Source: a virus
Length of the DNA: 64,000 bases
Direction: 5' to 3' (one strand)
Virus record (IMG/VR): IMGVR_UViG_3300032242_001644
Location: 1-64,000 of that record
Shown: positions 1,883 to 54,127 of the stretch, piece after piece
How positions within the stretch are numbered: the first letter of the stretch is position 1
Layout of the letters: the number at the start of each line of letters is the position of its first letter
Made by a program: the position numbers and the translations under genes
Notes under the pieces: generated by a model
Seen by the model: only the letters and a program-made list of their open reading frames with translations
What the model was told of the DNA's origin: nothing
The model's database searches: none

Positions 1883-2134
1883 CTATTTAGCCCACTGTAT
1901 GCGATAGGCTCCATATGTTTCGTTGTCAAAGAATTCAGCAACCAAGGTCACCCATCGTTGATCATCAGCTCGGTATTCTGTATCCAGAACCAACTGTACC
2001 TTGTAGAGTGGTTGATTAAAAAACCACTTGTACTGCTCGGGCTCTAGATGTCGTTCAATTACATCCCACTTTAATTCGTAAGGTTCGCCGGCCCATGCTA
2101 GCCACGAACACAGCTCAACACGATTAGAAAGCAT
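1883..2134 (-). CDS. Hypothetical protein, 83 aa
   Basis: Small Trp/Tyr-rich protein overlapping the end of the helicase gene by 11 nt, so it is probably translated from the same mRNA. No motif or membrane segment is recognised. The C-terminal half (residues 45-83) looks like a short beta sheet. Function unknown. Confidence 0.55.
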   Translation of the reverse strand: MLSNRVELCSWLAWAGEPYELKWDVIERHLEPEQYKWFFNQPLYKVQLVLDTEYRADDQRWVTLVAEFFDNETYGAYRIQWAK

Positions 2135-3584
2135 CGTCGTCGCCGGGCATGTTATTCAACAGTTGTCGTAGCTTACTGCTGTCTACCTGTGCCCTTACAC
2201 GGCCTACTGCTACACCTTCTAGAGGATCGGCACTGCGGATTTCTCCGGTCTCGGGATCAGTTGTAGCGGTAACTGTACTGCTACGTGCTTTCAGTGCAGA
2301 TACAATACTACTATTGCGACTCTGACCACCGTGTTCACCGTTATCCTGTTCATCTTCAGGAAGATCAGTGATGCGGAGTGTTTCAATATTAAACTCCAGA
2401 TCAATCTTCATGCCCACACCACTTGATGAACGAGTCTTCATCAACTGTAGCTGATAGCGTCCCCGTTCACGCATGGCCCTTGATGTAAAGATACCAAACA
2501 CATTATCTGCTGTCTGAATCTTACTCAAGCCACCGCTAATGTGACTGTGATCAAATTCAACTTCTTCTACAGCACCACGATTCAACTGTGCCGCTGTGAC
2601 AAACACGCATTGTTTTTCCATGGCTAGATTACGCAGTTCTTCCGACACATACTTGTCCTTGACAAACAAGTTTTCCGCGGAGATCTTCTTACCGTTGGGC
2701 ATTAACAGATCCAAGTAGTCCACCAAAAGTACGTCTACTCGCTTGCCAATTTTAATTTCGTATTCTTTCAAGTAGGCACGAATATCGTTGGCAGTCTTGC
2801 CACTTGGCATATACTTGACCTGTAGCTGTCCTGATTTGCGGCCAATCATCTTGACCTTCATCTCAACATCATCAAGATTCTTAAAGATGTCACGAGTGGT
2901 AATTCCAGTGGTCATTGAGTCAATACGCATGGACACCAGTGCTTCACTAAGTTCCAATGTTAGGTATACCACGTTCAAACCCTGTAGGGCAAAGTTCACA
3001 CCTAGGTTGGCCAAGAATAGAGATTTACCTGCACCTGATCCACCTGCAAAGATGTTAAGTTCACCGCGATTAAATCCGCCAAACAGTTTACGATCCATTG
3101 TGGCCCAGCCTGTGCCTACCTGACCGTTCTTATCTTTCAATCCCATTAACCTGCCGCGAGGATCAGCAAAGTAGTCTGTACCCATATCTCGGGCTAGACC
3201 AATCTGCACTGCTTCTTTAATCAGTGCTTCCACTTCACCGTAGTTGTGATTCTCAAGTAATTCAGCTGATGCAAGGATTGCACGTTCAATGGCCTTGTGA
3301 CGTGTGAACTGTTCAAACTCATCCATGAGCCAATCCAAGTGGCCTTCTTTAAGTTCTCCGGGACTTGCCAGTGCAGTCTTACATGATGAATTAACCATGT
3401 TGAAGTCCGGCAAGACTGTGTATTTCTCTGCATACTCTTTAATAAACTGTGCGGCTTCTTGTAGCTTACGGTCAAATAGTGTTGCATCAAAAATACCTTG
3501 GCAGCGTACAAATGTTTCTGCATCTGCCAACATAAGTTCTAAGTACAGTTTCTGTACTTCATAATCATAATCTTTTATAGTCAT
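2124..3584 (-). CDS. 41: Replicative DNA helicase (T4 gp41-like, DnaB family)
   Basis: Hexameric 5'-3' helicase that unwinds the replication fork together with the primase. Residues 1-130 form the helical N-terminal domain. The RecA-type core starts near 150, with Walker A G-G-S-G-A-G-K-S at 181-188 and Walker B D-V-L-L-V-D-Y at 284-290. An arginine-rich segment at 369-376 fits the C-terminal nucleotide-contact region. The length of 486 aa is near the family norm (T4: 475). A sigma70-like promoter lies directly upstream, with its -10 box ending 5 nt before the ATG and no Shine-Dalgarno sequence. The primase gene lies upstream on the same strand. Confidence 0.93.
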   Translation of the reverse strand: MTIKDYDYEVQKLYLELMLADAETFVRCQGIFDATLFDRKLQEAAQFIKEYAEKYTVLPDFNMVNSSCKTALASPGELKEGHLDWLMDEFEQFTRHKAIERAILASAELLENHNYGEVEALIKEAVQIGLARDMGTDYFADPRGRLMGLKDKNGQVGTGWATMDRKLFGGFNRGELNIFAGGSGAGKSLFLANLGVNFALQGLNVVYLTLELSEALVSMRIDSMTTGITTRDIFKNLDDVEMKVKMIGRKSGQLQVKYMPSGKTANDIRAYLKEYEIKIGKRVDVLLVDYLDLLMPNGKKISAENLFVKDKYVSEELRNLAMEKQCVFVTAAQLNRGAVEEVEFDHSHISGGLSKIQTADNVFGIFTSRAMRERGRYQLQLMKTRSSSGVGMKIDLEFNIETLRITDLPEDEQDNGEHGGQSRNSSIVSALKARSSTVTATTDPETGEIRSADPLEGVAVGRVRAQVDSSKLRQLLNNMPGDDDAF

Positions 3585-3589
3585 AGTTT

Positions 3590-3618
3590 ATTATACACTC
3601 TTTAAACGTTAATCTCAA
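3590..3618 (-). promoter_or_regulatory. Sigma70-like promoter of gp41
   Basis: TTGAGA (3613-3618), 17-nt spacer, consensus TATAAT (3590-3595), then AAACT and the ATG at 3584. It overlaps the 3' end of the carbamoyltransferase gene. Confidence 0.5.
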
Positions 3619-4549
3619 TATGTTTTACAAGTTCCCAGTCTCGTCTTACTCGTGTCTTTGTGTGATACAATACTGCCCCTAGAGCACTGGATGCATCACC
3701 AGGATCGGGTAAAGACCAGCGATACTTAAACGCAGGCTCCACAAACCGTTTGTTAGCCGCTGAATTCATAGCGCACCCTCCCATATAAACTAGACAATCA
3801 GTATTGACTAATTTCCTAGCTTCCATCATAATCATTCCAACTTGTCCTTCAAACGCATCTTGTACTGCGGCTGCAATATCGCATTGATCTTGTAGTGTTA
3901 GAATAGGGTAAGGCCAGTTTAATACACCTCGATGTAGGTTGTATTTTAGATTAAGTGTATTACTAACATAATCATTAACTTCTTTAAAGTACCGCTGTTC
4001 GTTACCTTGCGCCGCCATCTTTTGTAACAAGTGTTCGTCTTTAATCGGAGTAAGGCCAATTAATTTTGTAAATGCCGAATAGAACAAACCCAAACTATGT
4101 GGATAGCTACGGCTCCATACTTTCTTTATTTCACCGTGTAGGCCTTGCCAGATGGTAGCACATTCAAACTCACCTATTGCATCAAGTACAACCACAGCAC
4201 AGTGATTGAAAGGGCTAGTATAATATCCAGCGGCAGCATGACTAGCATGATGAGTAGTGTAAGTAACAGGAGCATATCCCAATCCCCATTTTTTAAGTTT
4301 TTGTGTTGGTAAATTTTCTAAACTAAATGCTGTACTGTATTGTCCGGCACGTAGCTGTCTTGCTTTCTTGAGCCAGGGATTTTCATACCAAAAGATACGA
4401 TCAGGAGCACCTTGATAATCTAATGCATATCGAATAAACTCACTAGGCAGTCGATCGTCATTAGATACACTGTGTCTTAGATATTGTCCGTCCCTAAACA
4501 CAGCTAAACTACTGCCGTGATTAAGAGCACTAATACCCCACGATATCAT
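3602..4549 (-). CDS. Carbamoyltransferase N-terminal domain protein (short form)
   Basis: This 315-aa protein matches the N-terminal, Kae1-like domain of the NodU/CmcH/TobZ O-carbamoyltransferases. It has a G-I-S-A-L-N-H-G-S start, the metal-site cluster H100-H101-x-x-H104 followed by A-A-A-G-Y-Y-T-S-P-F, a D-A-I-G-E-F segment, and G-G-C-A-M-N near residue 258. The C-terminal YrdC-like half that makes the carbamoyl-adenylate in full-length enzymes is absent; compare the 589-aa paralogue at 52358-54127. It may act with another protein or have a changed reaction. The start overlaps the stop of a 38-aa gene as ATGA. Confidence 0.8.
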   Translation of the reverse strand: MISWGISALNHGSSLAVFRDGQYLRHSVSNDDRLPSEFIRYALDYQGAPDRIFWYENPWLKKARQLRAGQYSTAFSLENLPTQKLKKWGLGYAPVTYTTHHASHAAAGYYTSPFNHCAVVVLDAIGEFECATIWQGLHGEIKKVWSRSYPHSLGLFYSAFTKLIGLTPIKDEHLLQKMAAQGNEQRYFKEVNDYVSNTLNLKYNLHRGVLNWPYPILTLQDQCDIAAAVQDAFEGQVGMIMMEARKLVNTDCLVYMGGCAMNSAANKRFVEPAFKYRWSLPDPGDASSALGAVLYHTKTRVRRDWELVKHIEINV

Positions 4550-4751: not shown

Positions 4752-5759
4752 TTATGTCATAAACTGCGCACTTTTCTGTTTTCGTCTTAATAAGTTAATT
4801 CTTATAGGACCAGCTACACTTGTACTGATCGCATCGACTATGACAAATAAAGAGCCATATTTTTCTACGGCAGCACTTGGATCTTTAATCTCTGGTTCCC
4901 ATGTTGGAAACGCCACATGCCAGTCTAGTTCAATTGCTCGATCAATTAATTTGCTGCCAGCTTTGTCTTGGTCTGGAATAACAATCACAGTCTTACCTAA
5001 TCTATTAATTAGCTTGGCCTGATCATCAGAGACATCGTTATGCAGTAAGGCAACACCGTTTACAGCCAAGGCATCAAACGGACCTTCTACCACAAATATA
5101 TATTGTTGTTGATTGGTTATTGCATCTAAATTGAATACAAAATTAGGATGTTGATCTGATAGATATTTGGGCTTGCCATCTTTAATTTTACGGGCAGTAC
5201 TGCCTACATTCTTACCTTCATAGGTAAAAGGTATAATCACACGGTCTTTATAACTGTCCAACGGACTCCAATAAAAGCGACCGTTTACAGGATCATACCC
5301 TCTATCTACAACATATTGAACAACCAAAGCAAGTTGCATTTCTTGCTCTTGTTCCATGTCAATATCTAACCAATCTATCAAAGGCAATGCACCTTTGGGT
5401 AAGGGCTTTTCTGCAAAACGTAATTGGGGGGCTTGGGCAGGTGTTTGTGTATCCGAAGCTTCTGTTTTCATTGCTTCAAAAATCATCTTTCGAATATCAT
5501 CGTCAGGCGCACCTAACCATGCCATTAAATCTTTAAGTTTTTTACTAACGGGTCTGCCGGGTTTCCAGCTTGCTGTGTATCCGCAATTGAAGCAGTTATA
5601 CACAAAACCTTCATTATACTTTACACCACCACGCTGCCTAGTGTCGTGTTTTTCACCTCTATGATGGCAGCATGGTGCGTTAAAACTAGTCCAGCCGCTA
5701 GGTGTCTTTTTTGCACGTGGCGGTAAGTTCTTCTGGAATAGGTCAACAACTGAGGTCAT
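4752..5759 (-). CDS. 61: DNA primase (T4 gp61-like)
   Basis: Makes RNA primers at the fork with the gp41 helicase. The N-terminus carries a zinc-binding module: cysteines and histidines at 30-33, His38, and C56-x-x-C59. The Toprim catalytic domain shows E-G-P-F-D-A-L at 225-231 and P-D-Q-D-K-A-G at 262-268, the expected metal-binding acids. At 335 aa it matches T4 gp61 (342 aa). It lies upstream of gp41 on the same strand. A sigma70-like promoter ends 6 nt before the ATG. Confidence 0.88.
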   Translation of the reverse strand: MTSVVDLFQKNLPPRAKKTPSGWTSFNAPCCHHRGEKHDTRQRGGVKYNEGFVYNCFNCGYTASWKPGRPVSKKLKDLMAWLGAPDDDIRKMIFEAMKTEASDTQTPAQAPQLRFAEKPLPKGALPLIDWLDIDMEQEQEMQLALVVQYVVDRGYDPVNGRFYWSPLDSYKDRVIIPFTYEGKNVGSTARKIKDGKPKYLSDQHPNFVFNLDAITNQQQYIFVVEGPFDALAVNGVALLHNDVSDDQAKLINRLGKTVIVIPDQDKAGSKLIDRAIELDWHVAFPTWEPEIKDPSAAVEKYGSLFVIVDAISTSVAGPIRINLLRRKQKSAQFMT

Positions 5760-6528: not shown

Positions 6529-6903
6529 ATGAGAATAAGCGACAACCTACAACAAAATTTCCCCTTTATCACGGTACTCAGCTACGTTGAGCACGAATAC
6601 GTGGGCATAATAATAAACCAAGATTCCCAAGTTACGAGCATGTACGACTATAGTGCCCTTAAAACAGAAGAAGAAAAAACACGATTTCTAGAGATGGGAG
6701 ATATTTGGTGGTGGGAATCTAATCGAATGATTCCCATTAACATATTCCTTGCTAAGGAAATGTACAATTTCAAGTATATAATTAAGAACTTATCCAGCAA
6801 GGATGTAAAGGTATTATTTGGGCCTGTTACTAGCCTAAATGATATAATTGTTAAACGTGTAAAAAGACGATCAATTACACTAGTTCGTCGTACTAAAGAT
6901 TAA
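6529..6903 (+). CDS. Conserved T4-like phage protein of unknown function, 124 aa
   Basis: The only plus-strand gene in this part of the window. It begins M-R-I-S-D-N-L-Q, has a Trp-rich stretch (W-W-W-E-S-N-R, near residues 60-66), then P-I-N-I-F-L, and ends in a basic tail. From memory, proteins of this pattern recur in T4-like cyanomyoviruses with no known function; a nucleic-acid or regulatory role is possible given the basic C-terminus. It converges on the DnaE-like gene with a 4-nt overlap. Confidence 0.65.
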   Translation: MRISDNLQQNFPFITVLSYVEHEYVGIIINQDSQVTSMYDYSALKTEEEKTRFLEMGDIWWWESNRMIPINIFLAKEMYNFKYIIKNLSSKDVKVLFGPVTSLNDIIVKRVKRRSITLVRRTKD

Positions 6904-7481
6904 CTAAATCCGTAACTAATTTGCTCGCAGATTAAATTCATCTGCACAGTGATTGCCACTGCATAGGCAACTGCATGAGCTTTCTTAAAATAGTATTCAT
7001 GTTCATGTTTGGGCTTTGTCCATATCTCTGCTTCTACTGTTGCCCAATCTTTTCCTATTAGATATCTCTTTGCTGGACGAATCATTGCCAATACTGCTGC
7101 CAATTGTTCCACGGATGTTGGTTTTACTTTTCTTAGAATAGAACCGTGGCCGTTGACGTGAAATAACAGATTAACAAAATCATCTTGCTCAAGTAGATCC
7201 CATAGTGGATCGGTATTCATCAACTGGATTAGATGTGCCTCATCACGTATGTCTTTATATAGGCTCACATTAAGAAAATCTATTTTAAAATAACCAGCTT
7301 CATCGGCGGCTTCATACGGAACTGCCGATAGATTAGTTTTTGCATTAACTGGAACAGTATGAAAATACACGCCTGTGTTATGAGGCACTAATTTTCCATC
7401 CTCAAGACGACTGGCTTTAACGTGCTCAAATAGAGCTAAGGCCTTTGTCCTATCTGCAAAGTCTATATCAATATCTGGCAT
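6900..7481 (-). CDS. Miniature DnaE-like protein (Pol III alpha palm motifs only)
   Basis: A 193-aa protein that begins P-D-I-D-I-D-F (residues 2-8), the Asp cluster of the bacterial Pol III alpha (DnaE) palm. It then has H-N-T-G-V-Y-F at 34-40 (compare the GV.. region of DnaE), F-K-I-D-F-L at 65-70 (compare K-F-D-F-L-G), a segment ending R-P at 135-136 (compare A-L-x-R-P-G), and Y-F-K-K-A-H-A-V-A-Y at 164-173 (compare F-N-K-S-H-A-A-A-Y). These occur in the same order as in DnaE, but the PHP domain, most of the fingers, the beta-binding and OB domains are missing. It is last in the UvsW operon. Whether it polymerises is unknown; it could be a DNA-binding or regulatory relic. Confidence 0.7.
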   Translation of the reverse strand: MPDIDIDFADRTKALALFEHVKASRLEDGKLVPHNTGVYFHTVPVNAKTNLSAVPYEAADEAGYFKIDFLNVSLYKDIRDEAHLIQLMNTDPLWDLLEQDDFVNLLFHVNGHGSILRKVKPTSVEQLAAVLAMIRPAKRYLIGKDWATVEAEIWTKPKHEHEYYFKKAHAVAYAVAITVQMNLICEQISYGFS

Positions 7482-7720
7482 TATTGTACTCTAGTTGTTT
7501 CAAATAATAGTAAGGGTAATGTTTCTGCAAGGAACTCAGCATACTCTTCTGAGTCTTCTTCGTCTTCAAATCCGCTAAACTTTACTGTTACTGTATTGTC
7601 TGTTTCGTCAACAAACACTTCAATATCTATGTCGTCGTCAGAAATAAACTCTTCATTCTCTGCAAGTTCGTCTGTGTCTTTGATTTCTTCAACTACTTCT
7701 TTTGCTTTTCTTTTAGACAT
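7481..7720 (-). CDS. Small acidic protein, 79 aa
   Basis: Overlaps both neighbours by one base, so it is in a tight operon. It has a basic first 8 residues, then a very acidic middle (residues 10-58) with an alternating V-x-V-x-F strand near 44-49, and a hydrophobic end L-P-L-L-L-F. It may be a protein partner or DNA mimic of an adjacent replication protein. No family assigned. Confidence 0.6.
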   Translation of the reverse strand: MSKRKAKEVVEEIKDTDELAENEEFISDDDIDIEVFVDETDNTVTVKFSGFEDEEDSEEYAEFLAETLPLLLFETTRVQ

Positions 7721-8427
7721 TATTGTACCTTTGCTTCCTGTAATACTTCTTTAACCAACTCAACATCACCGGGTAATGCCTTAAATCGTCTTGTCCAATA
7801 TGGTAAATCTAACATAGGAGTTATTATTTCCAACTGTTCATCATTCATTGATTTTAGCATATTTTTGCCGCTAGCACAATTTAAAATAATCCATGGACTA
7901 ATTAAACCATCCTTGATATGTTTAACTGCTCTATTTAAATTTACATATAAAAAATAGTGCTCCCATGTGGATTTGTTTTCATCTGCCCATTCCATCATAG
8001 TTTTAATAGTGCGTTGTATTGCACCATCTGCAGGTTCCTCTTTAATCAACTCCATTAGATATTGATCATACAGAGCATCTCTACACCAGTGGTCTAACTT
8101 AACACCGCTCTTAATTACCCATTCAACAAATCGTTCTGGATAGATAGGATTAGCATTAGACACAAAACTACCAAATTTTACAAACGCATTATAATAAGGA
8201 CTTTCAACAAAATCGTCAAACGTTTTCTTTTTGTTACTGCGTTGTGCAATTTCATAGAACTTCTGAAATGCCATCATGGCTGCAATTACATGTTTCTCGT
8301 TTTTACTCATGTGGCGGCGTTTGGGTTCACATACATGCACCATTAATGTTTTTTCTTTAACAAATGGTTTATTGCAGTATGCACAGGTAAAATTAGAGTT
8401 CTTTAATTTGCTTGTCATCCCAACCAT
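7720..8427 (-). CDS. Zinc-finger protein of unknown function, 235 aa
   Basis: The N-terminus holds a C2H2/C2HC-type finger: C-A-Y-C at 15-18, and His31 with Cys33 in the stretch L-M-V-H-V-C. The remaining 200 residues are helical, with basic stretches and several Trp. The overlap with the upstream gene (35 nt) indicates one operon; M4 (position 8418) is an alternative start. From memory, T4-like cyanophages have a similar protein near UvsW. Nucleic-acid binding is likely; exact role unknown. Confidence 0.65.
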   Translation of the reverse strand: MVGMTSKLKNSNFTCAYCNKPFVKEKTLMVHVCEPKRRHMSKNEKHVIAAMMAFQKFYEIAQRSNKKKTFDDFVESPYYNAFVKFGSFVSNANPIYPERFVEWVIKSGVKLDHWCRDALYDQYLMELIKEEPADGAIQRTIKTMMEWADENKSTWEHYFLYVNLNRAVKHIKDGLISPWIILNCASGKNMLKSMNDEQLEIITPMLDLPYWTRRFKALPGDVELVKEVLQEAKVQ

Positions 8428-8863
8428 GATCTTTTGCTAATTGTTTAATGTCTTTATCTGTGTACATAGATGCAAGTACATTCAAGTCATCGAGTTTATA
8501 TGCTGGATAAATGGTCTGTAAGAATTTCATTTTCTTACCACCTTGCTGTGCCTTACGTTCAAGTTTAATCCATTCGTGATAGAACGTCTTGCCTGATTCA
8601 TGACTACATAGACACAAGAGTCTCCACAACAATTTAGGATGTTGTTGTAAATCATTCCAATTTTTATTGAAGTATTCGTTTACAGTTAATACAAAATGTT
8701 CCTGTACTTCTCGACTGGCTTTGGCACTACTAATGTATCTGTTAAGAATAAAGAATTCTTGTTTCATTGCCTTGCGTTGCGTTTCATCAGCAAGGTCCCA
8801 TAGTTCGCGAACATTTTGATCTACTGCGGTTATAATTTCTTTTAGTGGTATCTTTTCACTCAT
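8393..8863 (-). CDS. Conserved replication-operon protein, 156 aa
   Basis: Helical protein with no catalytic motif. The pattern F-F-I-L-N-R-Y-I-S followed by L-T-V-N-E-Y-F-N and L-L-W-R-L-L is loosely like the small clamp-loader subunit gp62, but too weak to name. It overlaps the genes on both sides (8 nt and 35 nt). From memory it resembles a conserved protein near UvsW in marine T4-like phages. Function unknown; protein-protein contact in the replisome is plausible. Confidence 0.6.
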   Translation of the reverse strand: MSEKIPLKEIITAVDQNVRELWDLADETQRKAMKQEFFILNRYISSAKASREVQEHFVLTVNEYFNKNWNDLQQHPKLLWRLLCLCSHESGKTFYHEWIKLERKAQQGGKKMKFLQTIYPAYKLDDLNVLASMYTDKDIKQLAKDHGWDDKQIKEL

Positions 8864-9140: not shown

Positions 9141-9647
9141 TTAGATTACCTTGTGTAACTGTAGTACTTCACTTTGACGTGTGACTTCTTTGACAAAATA
9201 TGCACATAGTGGATTATGTCCTTCAGCAATAGGAACAGTTAATAACTGCCCGTTTTTCATCTTAGGGAAGTACCATTTAACATCTTGATAGATATTAACA
9301 ATTTCAATTGGCAAATATTCTGCTCTAAATCCTTTAATTGGATTAAACACAAATGCATCAAACCCTCGATCATTAATACTGGTTAGTGGCAGTACTTCCG
9401 GGTCTAGGCCGCAGTCTTTATCTCCTACTACCATGCACCAATCTAAGGGCATTTGCACTTCGTTGCCACCAATGCTTAATACAATTGCCGGACTGTTAAA
9501 TGATTCGAGGAATATCAACGGCATGAAAAAGAAATCAGGATCGTTAGGATTACTGTTGTCAAGTACACTATATCTGGTGTCTTCATCTACATCTTCCGGT
9601 AGATCATTTAAGTCAAACGACTCGTTGTTTAGGGTTAAAATTCTCAT
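9141..9647 (-). CDS. Conserved protein downstream of UvsW, 168 aa
   Basis: Sits directly after UvsW with a 4-nt overlap. It has an acidic N-terminal stretch, then D-F-F-F-M-P-L-I-F-L-E-S-F-N near residues 38-51, a P-L-D-W-C-M-V-V-G-D segment, and Y-Q-D-V-K-W-Y near 124-130. I recall a protein of this layout adjacent to UvsW in marine T4-like phages. Gene linkage suggests a role in recombination or repair. No catalytic residues recognised. Confidence 0.65.
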   Translation of the reverse strand: MRILTLNNESFDLNDLPEDVDEDTRYSVLDNSNPNDPDFFFMPLIFLESFNSPAIVLSIGGNEVQMPLDWCMVVGDKDCGLDPEVLPLTSINDRGFDAFVFNPIKGFRAEYLPIEIVNIYQDVKWYFPKMKNGQLLTVPIAEGHNPLCAYFVKEVTRQSEVLQLHKVI

Positions 9648-11137
9648 ATAGTTACCTTGGTTATTGAAAAAGGATATTTTGCATCCTTGTAAAACTTTTT
9701 ACGTTCTGTTAAGTGTCGTTTCGCATATTTTGTCCCCCCAGTGATATCCCAGATTTGTACGAAGTCTTTGTCTTCAGCTTTCCTAACGCCTCGTCCAATA
9801 CTTTGGATAACGCGAGTAAAGCTCTTTCCGGGTTCCACAAGAACCAAATTAAAGATCCTAGGAATATTAATGCCCACAGCGGCCACACCATAAGTCGCCA
9901 CAATAATATTATTACTACTTGTTTTAATTTCATCGTATGTCTCTTTTCTGTCTTTTGTTTTAACTGCACCGCTGACAAAATCTGCTCCTTCAATACGCTC
10001 ACTTAGCATATTTCCAGTTTCAATTCTATCGATTAATACAAGAGTATTGCCACTCTTGGCAATGTCTTGAATCTTTTTAGCCATCCAATCAATACGATCA
10101 ACATCTGTAGTTAGATATTTTAATTCTTCTGGGTAGCTTCTAAATTCTTTAATTTCAATTGTCTGTAGCACTTCAACGTGACATTGTGCCAGTACATCTT
10201 TACTCTGCAATTCATGGGCACTGATGCGATTTACCACAGGTCCAAGACTTGCATAGATGCTGGCAAACTCAAACTTTTCTTTAGGCACTGTTCCTGTTAG
10301 ACCCCAACGAATTGGACAGTTAGCAAGATCGCCTGTTAGGATATTCTTTAAGACATCTGCTTTTGCCTGGTGAACTTCGTCGACAATAATTGCCACAACA
10401 TCATGGAAAAATTCCGACAACTTCATTAGGTCATCGTTATCTTTACTTTTCTTGTCCATAACGTTTAAACTTTGCCAAGTACAAATTGTATGCGTTTTGT
10501 TAAGATCCTTACGGTCGCCATAGTAAACACCTACGTCTAATCCAAGGTTAACAAAATCTTCTTCAGTTTGTTCTACTAGTGATTTATTTGGAACAATTGT
10601 GATTGTGCGACCATATTTTTCACACAAGTGGCTCAAGGTTGCTGTGGTAATTGTCTTGCCAGCACCTGTGGCAATTTCTTGTAGACATTGTGGATTTTCT
10701 AGAAACTTGTTAACAGCATCATACTGATAGTCACGTAGCATGATAGGCTGTCCTTCTGCCGGATGACCCTTGGGCCAGGTCTTGCCCATGTCTGCCCAGT
10801 AGCTTTCTGTTACTTGATTGAACTCTAATTTAATAGATGTGCGTAGATCTTCTACTTCTATTTCGTAACCTTCATTGGTAATGATGTTAACACATTCTTC
10901 AAGATGACACATATAACCAGTACCGCCAATACCAAAGAAGGCAACTGTGCCATCCCAGCGACCTAGTCTATAAGATGGTTGATAACGTGCCCAAGGCACT
11001 TCGTACTTGAACTTGTTGGCCAGTTTGCGTCTAGTCTCTACACTGAGACCTTCGTACTTGACGTTTACTTCGTCTTTAATAATTAATTTACAAACTGACA
11101 ATTGTTGTATTCCTTTTAGCTGATGGCTTAATTTCAT
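9644..11137 (-). CDS. uvsW: UvsW-like RNA-DNA / branch-migration helicase
   Basis: Superfamily 2 helicase that in T4 unwinds R-loops and D-loops and branch-migrates stalled forks, shutting off origin initiation. The N-terminal domain (1-130) has the Y-x-L-G-R-W-D-G motif typical of UvsW. Helicase motifs: I, T-G-A-G-K-T at 157-162; II, D-E-V-H at 253-256; III, G-L-T-G-T at 279-283; VI, Q-S-I-G-R-G-V-R near the C-terminus. 497 aa (T4: 503). Its 5' end overlaps the upstream gene by 50 nt, so the true start could be slightly further in. Confidence 0.9.
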   Translation of the reverse strand: MKLSHQLKGIQQLSVCKLIIKDEVNVKYEGLSVETRRKLANKFKYEVPWARYQPSYRLGRWDGTVAFFGIGGTGYMCHLEECVNIITNEGYEIEVEDLRTSIKLEFNQVTESYWADMGKTWPKGHPAEGQPIMLRDYQYDAVNKFLENPQCLQEIATGAGKTITTATLSHLCEKYGRTITIVPNKSLVEQTEEDFVNLGLDVGVYYGDRKDLNKTHTICTWQSLNVMDKKSKDNDDLMKLSEFFHDVVAIIVDEVHQAKADVLKNILTGDLANCPIRWGLTGTVPKEKFEFASIYASLGPVVNRISAHELQSKDVLAQCHVEVLQTIEIKEFRSYPEELKYLTTDVDRIDWMAKKIQDIAKSGNTLVLIDRIETGNMLSERIEGADFVSGAVKTKDRKETYDEIKTSSNNIIVATYGVAAVGINIPRIFNLVLVEPGKSFTRVIQSIGRGVRKAEDKDFVQIWDITGGTKYAKRHLTERKKFYKDAKYPFSITKVTI

Positions 11138-13159: not shown

Positions 13160-13963
13160 ATGAATCTATCAGTTATCACAACTTTCAATCAAGCAGGTTA
13201 CGACAGATATGCTCAGAAAATGATACAGACATTTTTAGCAACCTGGCCAGCCGAAGTCACGTTGTATGCCTATGCAGAAGATTGCACAGTAATTGAAAGT
13301 GCTCCAAATTTAATAGTAATTGATCTTCATCAGGCAAGTCCTGCGTTGGTTGCATTTAAACATAAATGGAAAGATGTACCAAAGGCTAACGGTGACATTA
13401 GTGGCGACATAACTAGGTCAATACGATTAGATTCTAAAAAGAGTTTTAAATGGGATGCTATTAGATTTGCTCATAAAGTATATGCAATATTTGATTGTGC
13501 AAAGAAATGTAATAGTGATACGTTATTGTGGATGGATGCTGATACAATTTGTCATAGTCCTATTTCTATAGAGCAGCTATCTCGACTAATTCCACGAGAT
13601 AAAGAATTGTGTTTCCTTGGACGTGAGGGCAAGTATACGGAATGTGGATTATATGCAATGAATTTACGCAGTGCAATGATTACTAAATTTCTAGAAAACT
13701 TTCAACGTATGTATGATCATGCTGAACAGGGAATTTTCACACTTGAAGAATGGCATGACAGTTTTGTATTTGATGAGGTTAAACGTAGTATGGCGTTAAT
13801 TGAATTAAATTGGAGTGCAGGAATTATTCGTGGTGAAGGTCATCCATTAATAAATTCAGAGTGGGGCGCATACTTAGATCACCTAAAGGGTGATAGAAAA
13901 ACACTAGGTCGTAGCAAGTCAACTGATTTAAAAGTTCAAAGAACCGAAGCGTATTGGCAATGA
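13160..13963 (+). CDS. GT-A-type glycosyltransferase
   Basis: 267 aa. The start M-N-L-S-V-I-T-T-F-N-Q-A-G and the metal-binding D-A-D triad in L-L-W-M-D-A-D-T (near 122-129) identify a GT-A nucleotide-sugar transferase. Further acidic and His residues (E-W-H-D near 197-200) may complete the site. It ends in ATGA overlap with the next gene. It is first of three plus-strand glycan genes. The sugar and acceptor are unknown. Confidence 0.75.
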   Translation: MNLSVITTFNQAGYDRYAQKMIQTFLATWPAEVTLYAYAEDCTVIESAPNLIVIDLHQASPALVAFKHKWKDVPKANGDISGDITRSIRLDSKKSFKWDAIRFAHKVYAIFDCAKKCNSDTLLWMDADTICHSPISIEQLSRLIPRDKELCFLGREGKYTECGLYAMNLRSAMITKFLENFQRMYDHAEQGIFTLEEWHDSFVFDEVKRSMALIELNWSAGIIRGEGHPLINSEWGAYLDHLKGDRKTLGRSKSTDLKVQRTEAYWQ

Positions 13964-14637
13964 AAAGTTTTATTATATATTTGCCAAAGTTTGAATCTTC
14001 TACAAAAACAGCACTAGCATTAAAATTGCAACTGGAAGATTTCAACATGCCAGTTGAGCTGTTCGAGGGAACCTACGGCAACGATGCAGTTAAACAAATG
14101 GACCAAGAGAGTCGAATAGTGCATTCCTGGGGAATTAAAGGTCCAGATGTTCCAATAGATGAGTCGCATGCTAGTTTTAAAAAAGTAATAAAACCAGGAG
14201 TGAAAGGCTGTTTCTATAGTCACTATAGATTATGGAAAAAATGTGTAGAACTTAATGAATCTATTATTATTTGGGAAGATGACATTGTACTAACACGATC
14301 TTATATTCCAGTAGAATGGAGTGATGTATTGATCCTTGCACTAGGGCACCAGACAAAGAGTGAACGATATATGAACTTACTAACATCTCCTGCAGGTGAA
14401 CCTGCATCAGTGGAATACACACAATCATCAATGCCGGGTTGTTGTGGATATGCAATTAAACCACAGGCTGCACAGAAGTTATTAGACACGTTTAGTAATA
14501 CCTACCTACCTGCAGATAATGCAATAAACCAACATATTTTAAAAATTGAAATTCATAATCATGTAATGGGCATTGCCTTGGTTAAGAAAGACGGAAAGAA
14601 ATCGTTAACAACCAATGTAGAAATATGGAACAATTAA
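13960..14637 (+). CDS. Glycosyltransferase family 25 (LPS-type)
   Basis: 225 aa from the ATG at 13960, which overlaps the previous stop (ATGA); a TTG two codons earlier is less likely. The GT25 pattern is clear: G-C-F-Y-S-H-Y-R-L-W-K-K-C, then I-I-I-W-E-D-D-I (near 100), the catalytic-type E-D-D. The C-terminus has the usual D-N-A-I-N-Q-H region. GT25 enzymes add hexoses to lipooligosaccharide or to hydroxylysine. Overlaps the next gene by 13 nt. Confidence 0.8.
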   Translation: MKSFIIYLPKFESSTKTALALKLQLEDFNMPVELFEGTYGNDAVKQMDQESRIVHSWGIKGPDVPIDESHASFKKVIKPGVKGCFYSHYRLWKKCVELNESIIIWEDDIVLTRSYIPVEWSDVLILALGHQTKSERYMNLLTSPAGEPASVEYTQSSMPGCCGYAIKPQAAQKLLDTFSNTYLPADNAINQHILKIEIHNHVMGIALVKKDGKKSLTTNVEIWNN

Positions 14638-15245
14638 TTGAAATTAGAGACGGATGGTATTGGCCAAAATCAGATATTGGTTGTTGGCAATACTTAAATC
14701 AATATTCAGATGTTCCTGTAAAATGTTTTGAATTTGTAAAAAATAAAAAGGTGATAATTCAAGCAGGTGGTAACTGCGGTTTTTATGTTAGACCTTATGC
14801 AGATATATTCGAAACAGTGTATACTTTCGAACCAGACGAGTTAAATTTTTATTGTCTTAATAAAAATATTCTATCAAAAAATGTGTTATCTTTTCAGCAT
14901 TGTTTAGGAGAAGAAACTAAACTAGTAGGCATGAGAGGAAGAAGAAATGTTGGGCGACATAGTGTTGATGTTGACAGTAAACATAAACATACTACCATGA
15001 TCACTATTGATAGTTTAAATTTAGACACATGTGACTTGATTCATCTCGACATTGAAGGTTACGAGTTGTTTGCACTAAGGGGAGCTGCAAAAACTATAGC
15101 AAGATGCAAGCCAACAATTATTTTAGAATCAGTTGACAACAATATAAAATTTAACTATACCGATGCTGATGTTATTGATTTTCTAAGTCAGTTTGGTTAT
15201 AAAGTTGTTGGTCGTGTTTACACTGATATTGTTTTTCAAATATAA
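14625..15245 (+). CDS. FkbM-family methyltransferase
   Basis: 206 aa. The SAM-binding motif I is V-I-I-Q-A-G-G-N-C-G near 44-53, followed by acidic motif T-F-E-P-D near 71-75. The FkbM signature L-I-H-L-D-I-E-G-Y-E-L-F-A-L-R-G-A lies near 138-154. Such enzymes O-methylate sugars. The gene overlaps the GT25 gene, so methyl capping of the same glycan is likely. It converges with the minus-strand gene at 15236 (10-nt overlap). Confidence 0.8.
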   Translation: MEQLIEIRDGWYWPKSDIGCWQYLNQYSDVPVKCFEFVKNKKVIIQAGGNCGFYVRPYADIFETVYTFEPDELNFYCLNKNILSKNVLSFQHCLGEETKLVGMRGRRNVGRHSVDVDSKHKHTTMITIDSLNLDTCDLIHLDIEGYELFALRGAAKTIARCKPTIILESVDNNIKFNYTDADVIDFLSQFGYKVVGRVYTDIVFQI

Positions 15246-52357: not shown

Positions 52358-54127
52358 TTATTCTTTTTCTGCGTTTAAATTGTGGGGAACAGTTATTAAT
52401 TTTCCAATTTCTGGAAGATACAAATATGTTAAATCACTTTGTCTTAGGGTATGTAATGCATCATCAATAGTTTCAACTAGGGGATCACCGCCTAGATTAA
52501 AACTAGTATTGAATAGAATAGGAACACCGGTAAGTTTATTAAACTCTTGAATTAGTGCGTAATAATTTTTGTTTTCTTCTTCAGTAACTGTCTGTATACG
52601 GCATGTTCCATCCACATGAATAATACTAGGAATTTTGTCTTCTACACCCGGCTGGCAATCAACAGCATACATCATAAATGGACTTGCATCCATACCTCGT
52701 AGATCAAACCAATCATGTACAGCTTCTTTTAAAATTGTACCGGCAAAGGGTCGAAACCATTCACGGTGCTTAACTTCGTTAACAATATCTTTACCGTCCT
52801 TTACTCGTGGATCAAATAGAATACTTCGATTACCTAATGCACGTGGACCAGCTTCGCTACCACCTTGATACATACAAACAATAGTTTCTTCACTGATTAA
52901 TTTTGCAATATCGGCAATAGATGCATCGATAATAGATTCTCCATCTACTAAGTTAATATCATATTTTCCATTCTTTTCAAAATAGTTAGGTCCATGATAT
53001 ATTGTTTTTTGTGGATGACGAGTTAGATCGTTTGACAGTTCATAGTAGACAACTTTTGCAGCGCCAATACATGTACCACCGTCGTGTGCAATTGGTTCTA
53101 CATATAGATTAACACCGTCAGGTAAATGTTTTAAATATTCATAGTTGCCAACACAGTTTAATCCAAACCCTCCAGCGATAACAATATTTTTCTCCCCTGT
53201 GCGTTCTATTGCGTCTAATATTAAACGTACAATTTGTTGTTCGCATGCCTTTTGTACTGCATAGGCAAGATCCATTTTTGTTTCAATTGAATCGTTGTCT
53301 AGTGCAGGAAATGCCACACGATCGATATGAGCACCGTTAGGATAGTTAGGTACAAATAAATTACGATTACTTAAATGTCTGCCTTCTTCTCCCATAAAAA
53401 TTGTAGGGATCTTACTATTTTCTTTACCGTATGGCGCTAATCCCATTGCTTTTCCAGCTTCAATAAATGCAAAACCACAATAATCAGTCATTGCTTCGTA
53501 GCATTTTGTAATACCTGGATGATCTGTAAAAATTACATCATGTATATCTTCGGGTTTTCCTCGATTTTCATGGGGCACTTGATATTTTGCATAAGCCGGT
53601 TGAGGTCCACGAACACCAATGTGTTTATAGTGAGTTCTAAAATTAGCAGGATAAGATGCTGAAAAAATAGTCTCTAATTCATATCCAATTACGCCGCTGT
53701 CACCTAAAGGAATAAATGTTCCGGCACCGTCTACAATTAAACATGCTGCTGTTTCAAAACCACTATTATAGAATGCGCAGGCTGCATGCATTTCGTGGTG
53801 TATATGACCAAGATCAATTACTTGGGGGTGTGTTTCGGTGTCAACTTTTTGTTCAATTAGGCCTAATTTTCTTGCAAGACCTGTGTATATATCGTCACCG
53901 GCCCAATCAAGTTTAGGTCCTTTGGATAGTGGGCTGGTATGCGCAACCACTAGATAATCTAACTTATCAGTATATTCTTTAATTTTCATCATGCCGGCTA
54001 ATGGACTGCCGTCATATTTTTTTCGGCTAAGTCGTTCTTCTTCAATGTAAAAAACTAACTCACCGTCTTTAAGTAAACAAGTAGCACCGTTATGTCCTCT
54101 TGTGATTCCTGCAATCCATTGTGCCAT
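52358..54127 (-). CDS. Carbamoyltransferase (NodU/TobZ family), full length
   Basis: 589 aa, both domains present. N-terminal Kae1-like part: G-H-N-G-A-T at 11-16, E-E-E-R-L-S-R-K-K near 29-37, and metal ligands H110-H111-x-x-H114. C-terminal YrdC-like part: G-G-S-E-A-G-P-R-A-L-G-N-R-S-I near 420-434 and F-N-T-S-F-N near 545-550. The family uses carbamoyl phosphate and ATP to carbamoylate hydroxyl groups on sugars, nucleosides or antibiotics. Flanked by a GT9-like enzyme and an oxygenase, so a glycan acceptor is likely. AAGGA ribosome binding site. Confidence 0.9.
   Translation of the reverse strand: MAQWIAGITRGHNGATCLLKDGELVFYIEEERLSRKKYDGSPLAGMMKIKEYTDKLDYLVVAHTSPLSKGPKLDWAGDDIYTGLARKLGLIEQKVDTETHPQVIDLGHIHHEMHAACAFYNSGFETAACLIVDGAGTFIPLGDSGVIGYELETIFSASYPANFRTHYKHIGVRGPQPAYAKYQVPHENRGKPEDIHDVIFTDHPGITKCYEAMTDYCGFAFIEAGKAMGLAPYGKENSKIPTIFMGEEGRHLSNRNLFVPNYPNGAHIDRVAFPALDNDSIETKMDLAYAVQKACEQQIVRLILDAIERTGEKNIVIAGGFGLNCVGNYEYLKHLPDGVNLYVEPIAHDGGTCIGAAKVVYYELSNDLTRHPQKTIYHGPNYFEKNGKYDINLVDGESIIDASIADIAKLISEETIVCMYQGGSEAGPRALGNRSILFDPRVKDGKDIVNEVKHREWFRPFAGTILKEAVHDWFDLRGMDASPFMMYAVDCQPGVEDKIPSIIHVDGTCRIQTVTEEENKNYYALIQEFNKLTGVPILFNTSFNLGGDPLVETIDDALHTLRQSDLTYLYLPEIGKLITVPHNLNAEKE

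What the first reader, a model, noticed from the sequence alone, without database searches (positions are those of the whole stretch)
6900..7481. Miniature DnaE-like protein keeping only the palm motifs of Pol III alpha
A 193-aa protein carries P-D-I-D-I-D-F, F-K-I-D-F-L, a helix ending in R-P and Y-F-K-K-A-H-A-V-A-Y in the order found in bacterial DnaE (about 1160 aa), including the catalytic Asp positions, but lacks PHP, most fingers, OB and clamp-binding parts. It ends the UvsW operon. A T4-like phage would normally use a family B polymerase, so this may be a reduced nucleotidyl enzyme, a DNA-end binder or a host-polymerase decoy.
Basis: partly seen in the sequence, partly recalled or inferred. 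Interest (0 to 1): 0.75.

Follow-up and report, generated by a model that had tools for sequence, protein, structure and literature searches.

The report
One half of split phage DNA polymerase
This small gene of a large bacteria-infecting virus encodes one half of a stripped-down bacterial-type DNA polymerase whose other half lies far away in the same kind of genome; the split enzyme was described from sequence in 2021, its activity has apparently never been tested, and this is one more member of that family.

Summary
On the minus strand, 6900-7481 encodes 193 aa with DnaE motifs in order; all three catalytic Asp, the KxD Lys, HxxG, RP and FKKxHxxxY are conserved. AlphaFold (pLDDT 92.5) plus Foldseek match only Pol III alpha/PolC.

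It is not a self-contained mini-DnaE. It starts at PDIDIDF and lacks the triphosphate-binding GRGS motif. A second jumbo-phage gene, far away beside the clamp loader, encodes the missing part: it ends in GxGRGSS...EFLK/R, at E. coli DnaE ~396, while this protein begins at ~400. All 8 divergent isolates tested carry exactly one of each. In metagenome contigs, a half is missing only where its marker neighbour (UvsW or gp44) is missing too. Four relatives with both halves also have an intact family B polymerase.

This split, minimal Pol III alpha was described by Iyer et al. 2021 (PMC7824862); family phrog_11778. So this is a new member of a known, experimentally untested kind. Added here: the fixed junction, the fate of each active-site element (thumb and R709/R710 finger segment lost; a new invariant RPxK), co-occurrence and structural support.

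Best guess: the halves form a two-chain, thumb-less accessory nucleotidyltransferase beside the replicative PolB. The other half is not in this 86-kb fragment.

The parts
6900..7481 (-). CDS, 193 aa: C-terminal half of a split minimal DnaE (DxD, third Asp, reduced fingers); phrog_11778
7461..7475 (-). D3-I-D5-I-D7: D5 and D7 align with E. coli DnaE D401 and D403 region PDFDVD (metal ligands)
   Evidence: invariant in 74-sequence alignment A4; E. coli PDFDVD at 400
7371..7382 (-). H34-x-x-G37, aligned with E. coli KHAGG (510-514)
   Evidence: H34 and G37 invariant; hhalign
7278..7286 (-). K66-x-D68, aligned with E. coli K553 and D555 (third metal ligand)
   Evidence: invariant; hhalign; strand 67-71 in the model
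7068..7079 (-). R135-P136-x-K138, aligned with the E. coli RPGP turn at 639; K138 is invariant here and absent from E. coli DnaE
6963..6989 (-). F165-K-K-x-H169-x-x-x-Y173, aligned with E. coli FNKSHSAAY (756-764)
   Evidence: K166, H169, Y173 invariant
7479..7483 (-). TAATG overlap of the upstream stop and this start codon (translational coupling likely)
7481..7720 (-). 79-aa acidic protein directly upstream in the operon
   Evidence: no family match
9644..11137 (-). UvsW-like helicase heading the operon that this gene ends
   Evidence: same order in isolates
4752..5759 (-). Toprim primase (gp61-like), downstream replication gene
2124..3584 (-). DnaB-like helicase (gp41-like), downstream replication gene

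Best explanation
The protein is the C-terminal half of a trans-split, minimal bacterial-type (family C) DNA polymerase core carried by T4-like jumbo phages. SHOWN by sequence: it holds the metal-binding half of the palm (DxD and third Asp), the KxD Lys and a reduced fingers piece; the triphosphate-binding GRGS half of the palm is a separate ~175-aa protein in relatives; the two abut within about four residues on DnaE and recur together. INFERRED: the chains fold together, without intein splicing, into one Pol-beta-like active site that transfers nucleotides with two metals. Because the thumb, the R709/R710 finger segment, PHP, OB and clamp-binding parts are missing, I expect a distributive or short-patch accessory enzyme (gap filling, lesion or recombination-intermediate extension) working beside the intact PolB and supplied with DNA by a partner such as the UvsW or clamp-loader machinery, not the replicase. 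My estimates: C-half of a split DnaE core 0.97; halves associate 0.85; assembled enzyme catalytic 0.65-0.7; repair/accessory synthesis role 0.4.
For: Family and fold: phrog_11778 E=7e-68; hhalign to DnaE for both halves (N: E=6e-10, E. coli 319-396; C: E=4e-5, E. coli 510-641); both AF2 models (pLDDT 92.5 and 93.1) have C-family polymerases as their 14-15 best PDB matches. Junction: 80/80 N-half loci end about 35 residues after the start of GxGRGS, at EFL(K/R) or within a few residues of it; the C-half starts at or a few residues before DxDID. Co-occurrence: one N-half and one C-half in 8/8 divergent isolates; contigs lacking a half also lack its neighbour marker. Conserved catalytic set: D3, D5, D7, H34, G37, K66, D68, R135, P136, K138, H169, Y173 invariant in 74 sequences; GRGSS in 80/80 N-halves. 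PolB with exonuclease and polymerase motifs intact in five relatives. Prior report of the same split: Iyer et al. 2021, PMC7824862.
Against: No biochemistry was found for either half. The N-half is not in this window's 86-kb record, so the pair is inferred from relatives. Loss of the thumb and of the R709/R710 finger segment removes elements that full DnaE uses for DNA and dNTP binding. Complex formation was not modelled. Distance matrices of the halves correlate (r=0.73) no better than either does with UvsW (0.74, 0.77; partial r 0.37), so there is no strong specific co-evolution signal. The contig sets were found with motif-seeded scans, which favours motif-bearing members.
Confidence: 0.7

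Rival explanations
1. The split DnaE core is catalytically dead and survives as a structural or regulatory part of the phage replisome or recombination machinery.
For: Thumb and the R709/R710 finger segment are lost; PolB is intact; the genes sit beside UvsW and the clamp loader.
Against: All three Asp, the KxD Lys, GRGSS and the FKKxHxxxY motif are invariant or nearly so over sequences as low as ~40% identical; dead relatives usually lose metal ligands.
Confidence: 0.17
2. The pair is a nucleotidyltransferase with a job other than templated DNA synthesis: end tailing, primer making, or nucleotide transfer to another molecule.
For: The thumb is missing, so little more than the nucleotidyltransferase core remains; some Pol-beta-fold enzymes act without a template (established knowledge).
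Against: A reduced fingers piece and the DnaE-specific FKKxHxxxY helix are kept; the genes stay in replication operons.
Confidence: 0.09
3. Host-polymerase decoy or inhibitor: a DnaE mimic that competes for the host Pol III holoenzyme.
For: It resembles DnaE, and phages do attack host replisomes (established knowledge).
Against: It lacks the C-terminal parts that bind beta and tau; both halves are kept with catalytic residues in phages of very different hosts; T4-like phages bring their own replisome.
Confidence: 0.04

Closest known systems
Split minimal DNA polymerase III alpha of group 2.2 jumbo phages (Iyer et al. 2021, PMC7824862)
   Same: The same thing: a family B polymerase accompanied by a minimal Pol III alpha split into two proteins from distant genes, an N-terminal NTP-binding and a C-terminal Mg2+/template-binding unit.
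   Different: Nothing in kind. Added here: the window's member, the exact junction, the list of kept and lost active-site elements, conserved gene neighbours and structure matches.
phrog_11778 (C-half) and phrog_11127 (N-half), both labelled 'DNA polymerase'
   Same: The window protein matches phrog_11778 over nearly its full length, E=7e-68; the CBB N-half matches phrog_11127, E=1.7e-87.
   Different: The library gives both one label and does not say they are halves of one enzyme.
Pectobacterium phage CBB gp287/gp328, Agrobacterium phage Atu_ph07 gp074/gp316, Sinorhizobium phage Phosso 437/138
   Same: Orthologues (window C-half 39-53% identical), same operon ending.
   Different: The CBB paper noted only the N-half and called it truncated (172 vs 1120 aa; PMC5259590).
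Bacterial DnaE / PolC (family C replicase)
   Same: Palm motifs, order and fold.
   Different: No PHP, thumb, most of the fingers, OB or clamp-binding parts; palm divided between two chains.
African swine fever virus PolX (minimal Pol-beta-fold repair polymerase)
   Same: A viral enzyme described as reduced to the nucleotidyltransferase fold plus fingers (PMC11646218); a precedent for what this may work like.
   Different: Family X, one chain, a different family of the fold.

Membership tests
Split minimal Pol III alpha of jumbo phages (Iyer et al. 2021) | Short stand-alone protein with the Mg2+-binding palm part and reduced fingers, no other Pol III domains | tested here: met
   193 aa
Split minimal Pol III alpha of jumbo phages (Iyer et al. 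2021) | Partner gene for the NTP-binding half elsewhere in the same genome | tested here: inconclusive
   Absent from this 86-kb fragment; present in 8/8 isolates and in each of the four C-half contigs found to carry the gp44 neighbour
Split minimal Pol III alpha of jumbo phages (Iyer et al. 2021) | Same phage has a family B polymerase | tested here: inconclusive
   None in this fragment; an intact one in five relative contigs, four of which also hold both halves
Family C DNA polymerase (DnaE/PolC) | Three palm Asp (E. coli D401, D403, D555) and KxD Lys | tested here: met
   D5, D7, D68, K66 invariant in 74 sequences
Family C DNA polymerase (DnaE/PolC) | GRGS triphosphate motif in the same chain | tested here: not met
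   Absent from the window protein; in the separate N-half of relatives
Family C DNA polymerase (DnaE/PolC) | Pol III-type palm fold | tested here: met
   Foldseek best 14 matches all Pol III alpha/PolC, E=4.7e-4, prob 1.00
Family C DNA polymerase (DnaE/PolC) | Thumb (E. coli about 433-510, limits from established knowledge) | tested here: not met
   DxDID to HxxG spans about 30 residues here, about 107 in E. coli
Family C DNA polymerase (DnaE/PolC) | Finger segment with R709/R710 (LRRAMGKK) | tested here: not met
   RP to FKK is 30 residues here, 117 in E. coli; no other fingers gene found in relatives
Family C DNA polymerase (DnaE/PolC) | PHP, OB and beta-clamp-binding parts | tested here: not met
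   Protein is 193 aa, no such domains
Family C DNA polymerase (DnaE/PolC) | DNA polymerase activity | not testable with these tools
   Needs biochemistry

The most novel reading that the evidence does not exclude
The two chains reconstitute a thumb-less family C active site with a chemistry or role unlike any known Pol III (for example template-independent or primer-making synthesis), with the new invariant RPxK(R/K) motif standing in for the lost R709/R710 finger residues.
Probability: 0.15. Interest if true: 0.65.

Novelty: new member of a known kind. Interest (0 to 1): 0.35.

Why it matters
If the halves do form an active enzyme, they would be an exceptionally small family C polymerase core and a naturally split one, and would show how little of Pol III is needed for nucleotide transfer. 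They also raise the question why T4-like jumbo phages with a complete family B replicase keep a second, bacterial-type polymerase core in many lineages. The kind is already described, so the value of this case lies in making that question testable.

Tried and rejected
1) Self-contained mini-polymerase: rejected, the GRGS motif is missing and lies in a second gene. 2) Intein or trans-splicing: no intein-like sequence at the end of the N-half or start of the C-half (direct reading). 3) A third gene with the missing fingers: the Pfam fingers profile finds only the C-half itself in 15 genomes, apart from one weak hit in CBB. 4) Natural fusions of the halves: none among 80 N-half or 160 C-half loci inspected; scans were capped, so rare ones are not excluded. 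5) Contigs with one half as counter-examples: they also lack the neighbour marker, so look like fragments. 6) Obligate pairing with a DnaQ-like exonuclease: found in 7 of 8 isolates but absent from the four closest large contigs. 7) Mirror-tree for a specific interaction: uninformative beyond shared ancestry. 8) Cellular origin: the one genome-contig scan found only 11 MAG contigs, probably phage; none on plasmids. 9) Asp distances in the model: coordinates not available.

Full report
WHAT IS THERE. The minus strand of 6900-7481 encodes 193 aa starting MPDIDIDF, coupled to the previous gene by TAATG. It matches phrog_11778 'DNA polymerase' (E=7e-68) and part of the full-length phage DnaE family phrog_405 (E=9e-10). 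Pfam and PDB sequence searches with the single sequence give only weak DnaE matches.

MAPPING TO DnaE. With E. coli DnaE fetched and checked: D3-I-D5-I-D7 corresponds to PDFDVD (400), H34xxG to KHAGG (510), K66xD68 to KFD (553), RP (135) to RPGP (639), FKKAHAVAY (165) to FNKSHSAAY (756). Profile-profile alignment gives E=4e-5 over E. coli 510-641; the flanking motifs were placed by eye. The ~107 residues between DxD and KHAGG in E. coli (the thumb; domain limits from established knowledge of the E. coli structure) shrink to about 30, and the 117 residues from RP to FNKSH, which hold LRRAMGKK (R709/R710), shrink to 30. A Lys two residues after RP (K138) is invariant in 74 sequences and absent from E. 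coli DnaE.

THE OTHER HALF. The protein lacks the GRGS triphosphate motif. CBB has a second small 'DNA polymerase III alpha' gene, gp328, 172 aa. It ends ...WGLGRGSSVSSYCLYLIGLHLVDSIKYELDVNEFLKW, passes the Pfam DNA_pol3_alpha cut-off, and its family aligns with E. coli 319-396 (E=6e-10), ending a few residues before the C-half begins. In 80/80 metagenomic N-halves the chain stops 35-41 residues from the start of GxGRGS, nearly always at EFL(K/R). C-halves start at or within a few residues of DxDID in nearly all cases; those of CBB and 121Q have longer N-terminal extensions.

CO-OCCURRENCE AND NEIGHBOURS. Eight divergent isolates (CBB, 121Q, Phosso, Atu_ph07, Ettore, XacN1, CM1, Vibrio 2.275) each have one N-half and one C-half. 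The N-half sits near the gp44 clamp loader; the C-half ends the UvsW-led operon ahead of primase and helicase in most, with XacN1 an exception. In the large metagenome contigs tested, C-half records with gp44 have the N-half (4/4) and those without gp44 lack it (4/4); N-half records with UvsW have the C-half (8/8), and the one large record tested without UvsW lacks it. The window's own 86-kb record has no N-half and no family B polymerase; it is a fragment.

CONSERVATION. In 74 C-halves D3, D5, D7, R11, H34, G37, K66, D68, R135, P136, K138, K166, H169 and Y173 are invariant. N-halves keep GRGSS in 80/80. Caution: the scans are seeded on conserved peptides, so the metagenomic sets favour motif-bearing members; the isolates come from an unseeded tblastn and agree. 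Nine C-half loci first dropped by my script for lack of a nearby ATG also carry the motifs.

STRUCTURE. AlphaFold2 with locus-only alignments: C-half pLDDT 92.5, pTM 0.78; N-half pLDDT 93.1, pTM 0.78. Foldseek against the PDB: the first 14 matches of the C-half and first 15 of the N-half are Pol III alpha or PolC; N-half E-values are weaker (best 5e-3, prob 1.00). RMSDs are large, as may be expected for isolated halves against much larger targets. The complex was not modelled and Asp distances were not measured.

SECOND POLYMERASE, NOT THE REPLICASE. Five relative contigs encode a ~890-aa PolB with FFDIE, GWNSEGFDIPY (or GYDIPY), YNRQD, DINSLYPS, KKINLNSLYGA and YGDTDS intact; four of them also hold both halves. 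A DnaQ-like exonuclease is present in 7 of 8 isolates but not in the window's closest large relatives.

LITERATURE. Iyer et al. 2021 (PMC7824862) state that group 2.2 jumbo phages carry a phage-specific minimal Pol III alpha split into separate proteins from distant genes, an N-terminal NTP-binding and a C-terminal Mg2+/template-binding unit, likely to reconstitute a complete enzyme, possibly for one strand or for repair. The CBB paper (PMC5259590) noted the N-half as truncated. The marine jumbo-phage survey PMC9123017 found PF07733, probably this N-half, in 51.9% of one group. Six full-text searches of the held library found no experimental follow-up; subscription papers and preprints are not covered.

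HOW IT PROBABLY WORKS. Shown: homology, complementarity, co-occurrence, conserved catalytic set, absence of thumb and other parts. Inferred: the halves join into one two-metal active site. Since thumb and R709/R710 are gone, DNA grip and triphosphate contacts must come from the partner chain, from the new RPxK(R/K) motif, or from other replisome proteins; a short-patch accessory polymerase is the most economical reading. ASFV PolX, described as reduced to the nucleotidyltransferase fold plus fingers (PMC11646218), is a precedent for a viral repair polymerase of this economy.

VERDICT. Real, well conserved and curious, but a new member of a kind described in 2021. Interest 0.35: the function is open and easily testable.

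Noticed in passing
window 6529-6903 (+): A convergent gene (phrog_11637, unknown function) overlaps the end of the mini-DnaE gene by 4 bases; a convergent small gene stands at the same place in CBB, 121Q, Phosso, Atu_ph07, Ettore and the Vibrio phage.
   Followed up: partly
window 7720-8427 (-): phrog_11058 protein with an N-terminal C2H2-like CxxC stretch, two genes upstream of the mini-DnaE, unknown function.
   Followed up: no
window 8393-8863 (-): phrog_11758 protein; position and C-terminal look suggest a possible clamp-loader small subunit (gp62-like). A guess from reading only, no profile support.
   Followed up: no
window 3602-4549 (-): A 315-aa carbamoyltransferase N-terminal domain (PF02543, E=2e-23) without its usual C-terminal part lies between the helicase and primase genes; possibly DNA-base or sugar modification.
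   Followed up: no
window 13954-15245 (+): Glycosyltransferase family 25 and FkbM methyltransferase genes on the opposite strand to the replication genes.
   Followed up: no
L203 (2798-4873, 5882-7168) and L205 (3047-4702, 6182-7672): Full-size DnaE genes of Bacillus phage KLEB27-3 and Thomasclavelia phage TR-TP2 are annotated as two ORFs with an HNH endonuclease gene between them, a different kind of interruption.
   Followed up: no
G043 C1:50664-51416 and 52678-53421: UvsW appears as two separate pieces 1.3 kb apart in this contig, perhaps an intron or inserted gene.
   Followed up: no
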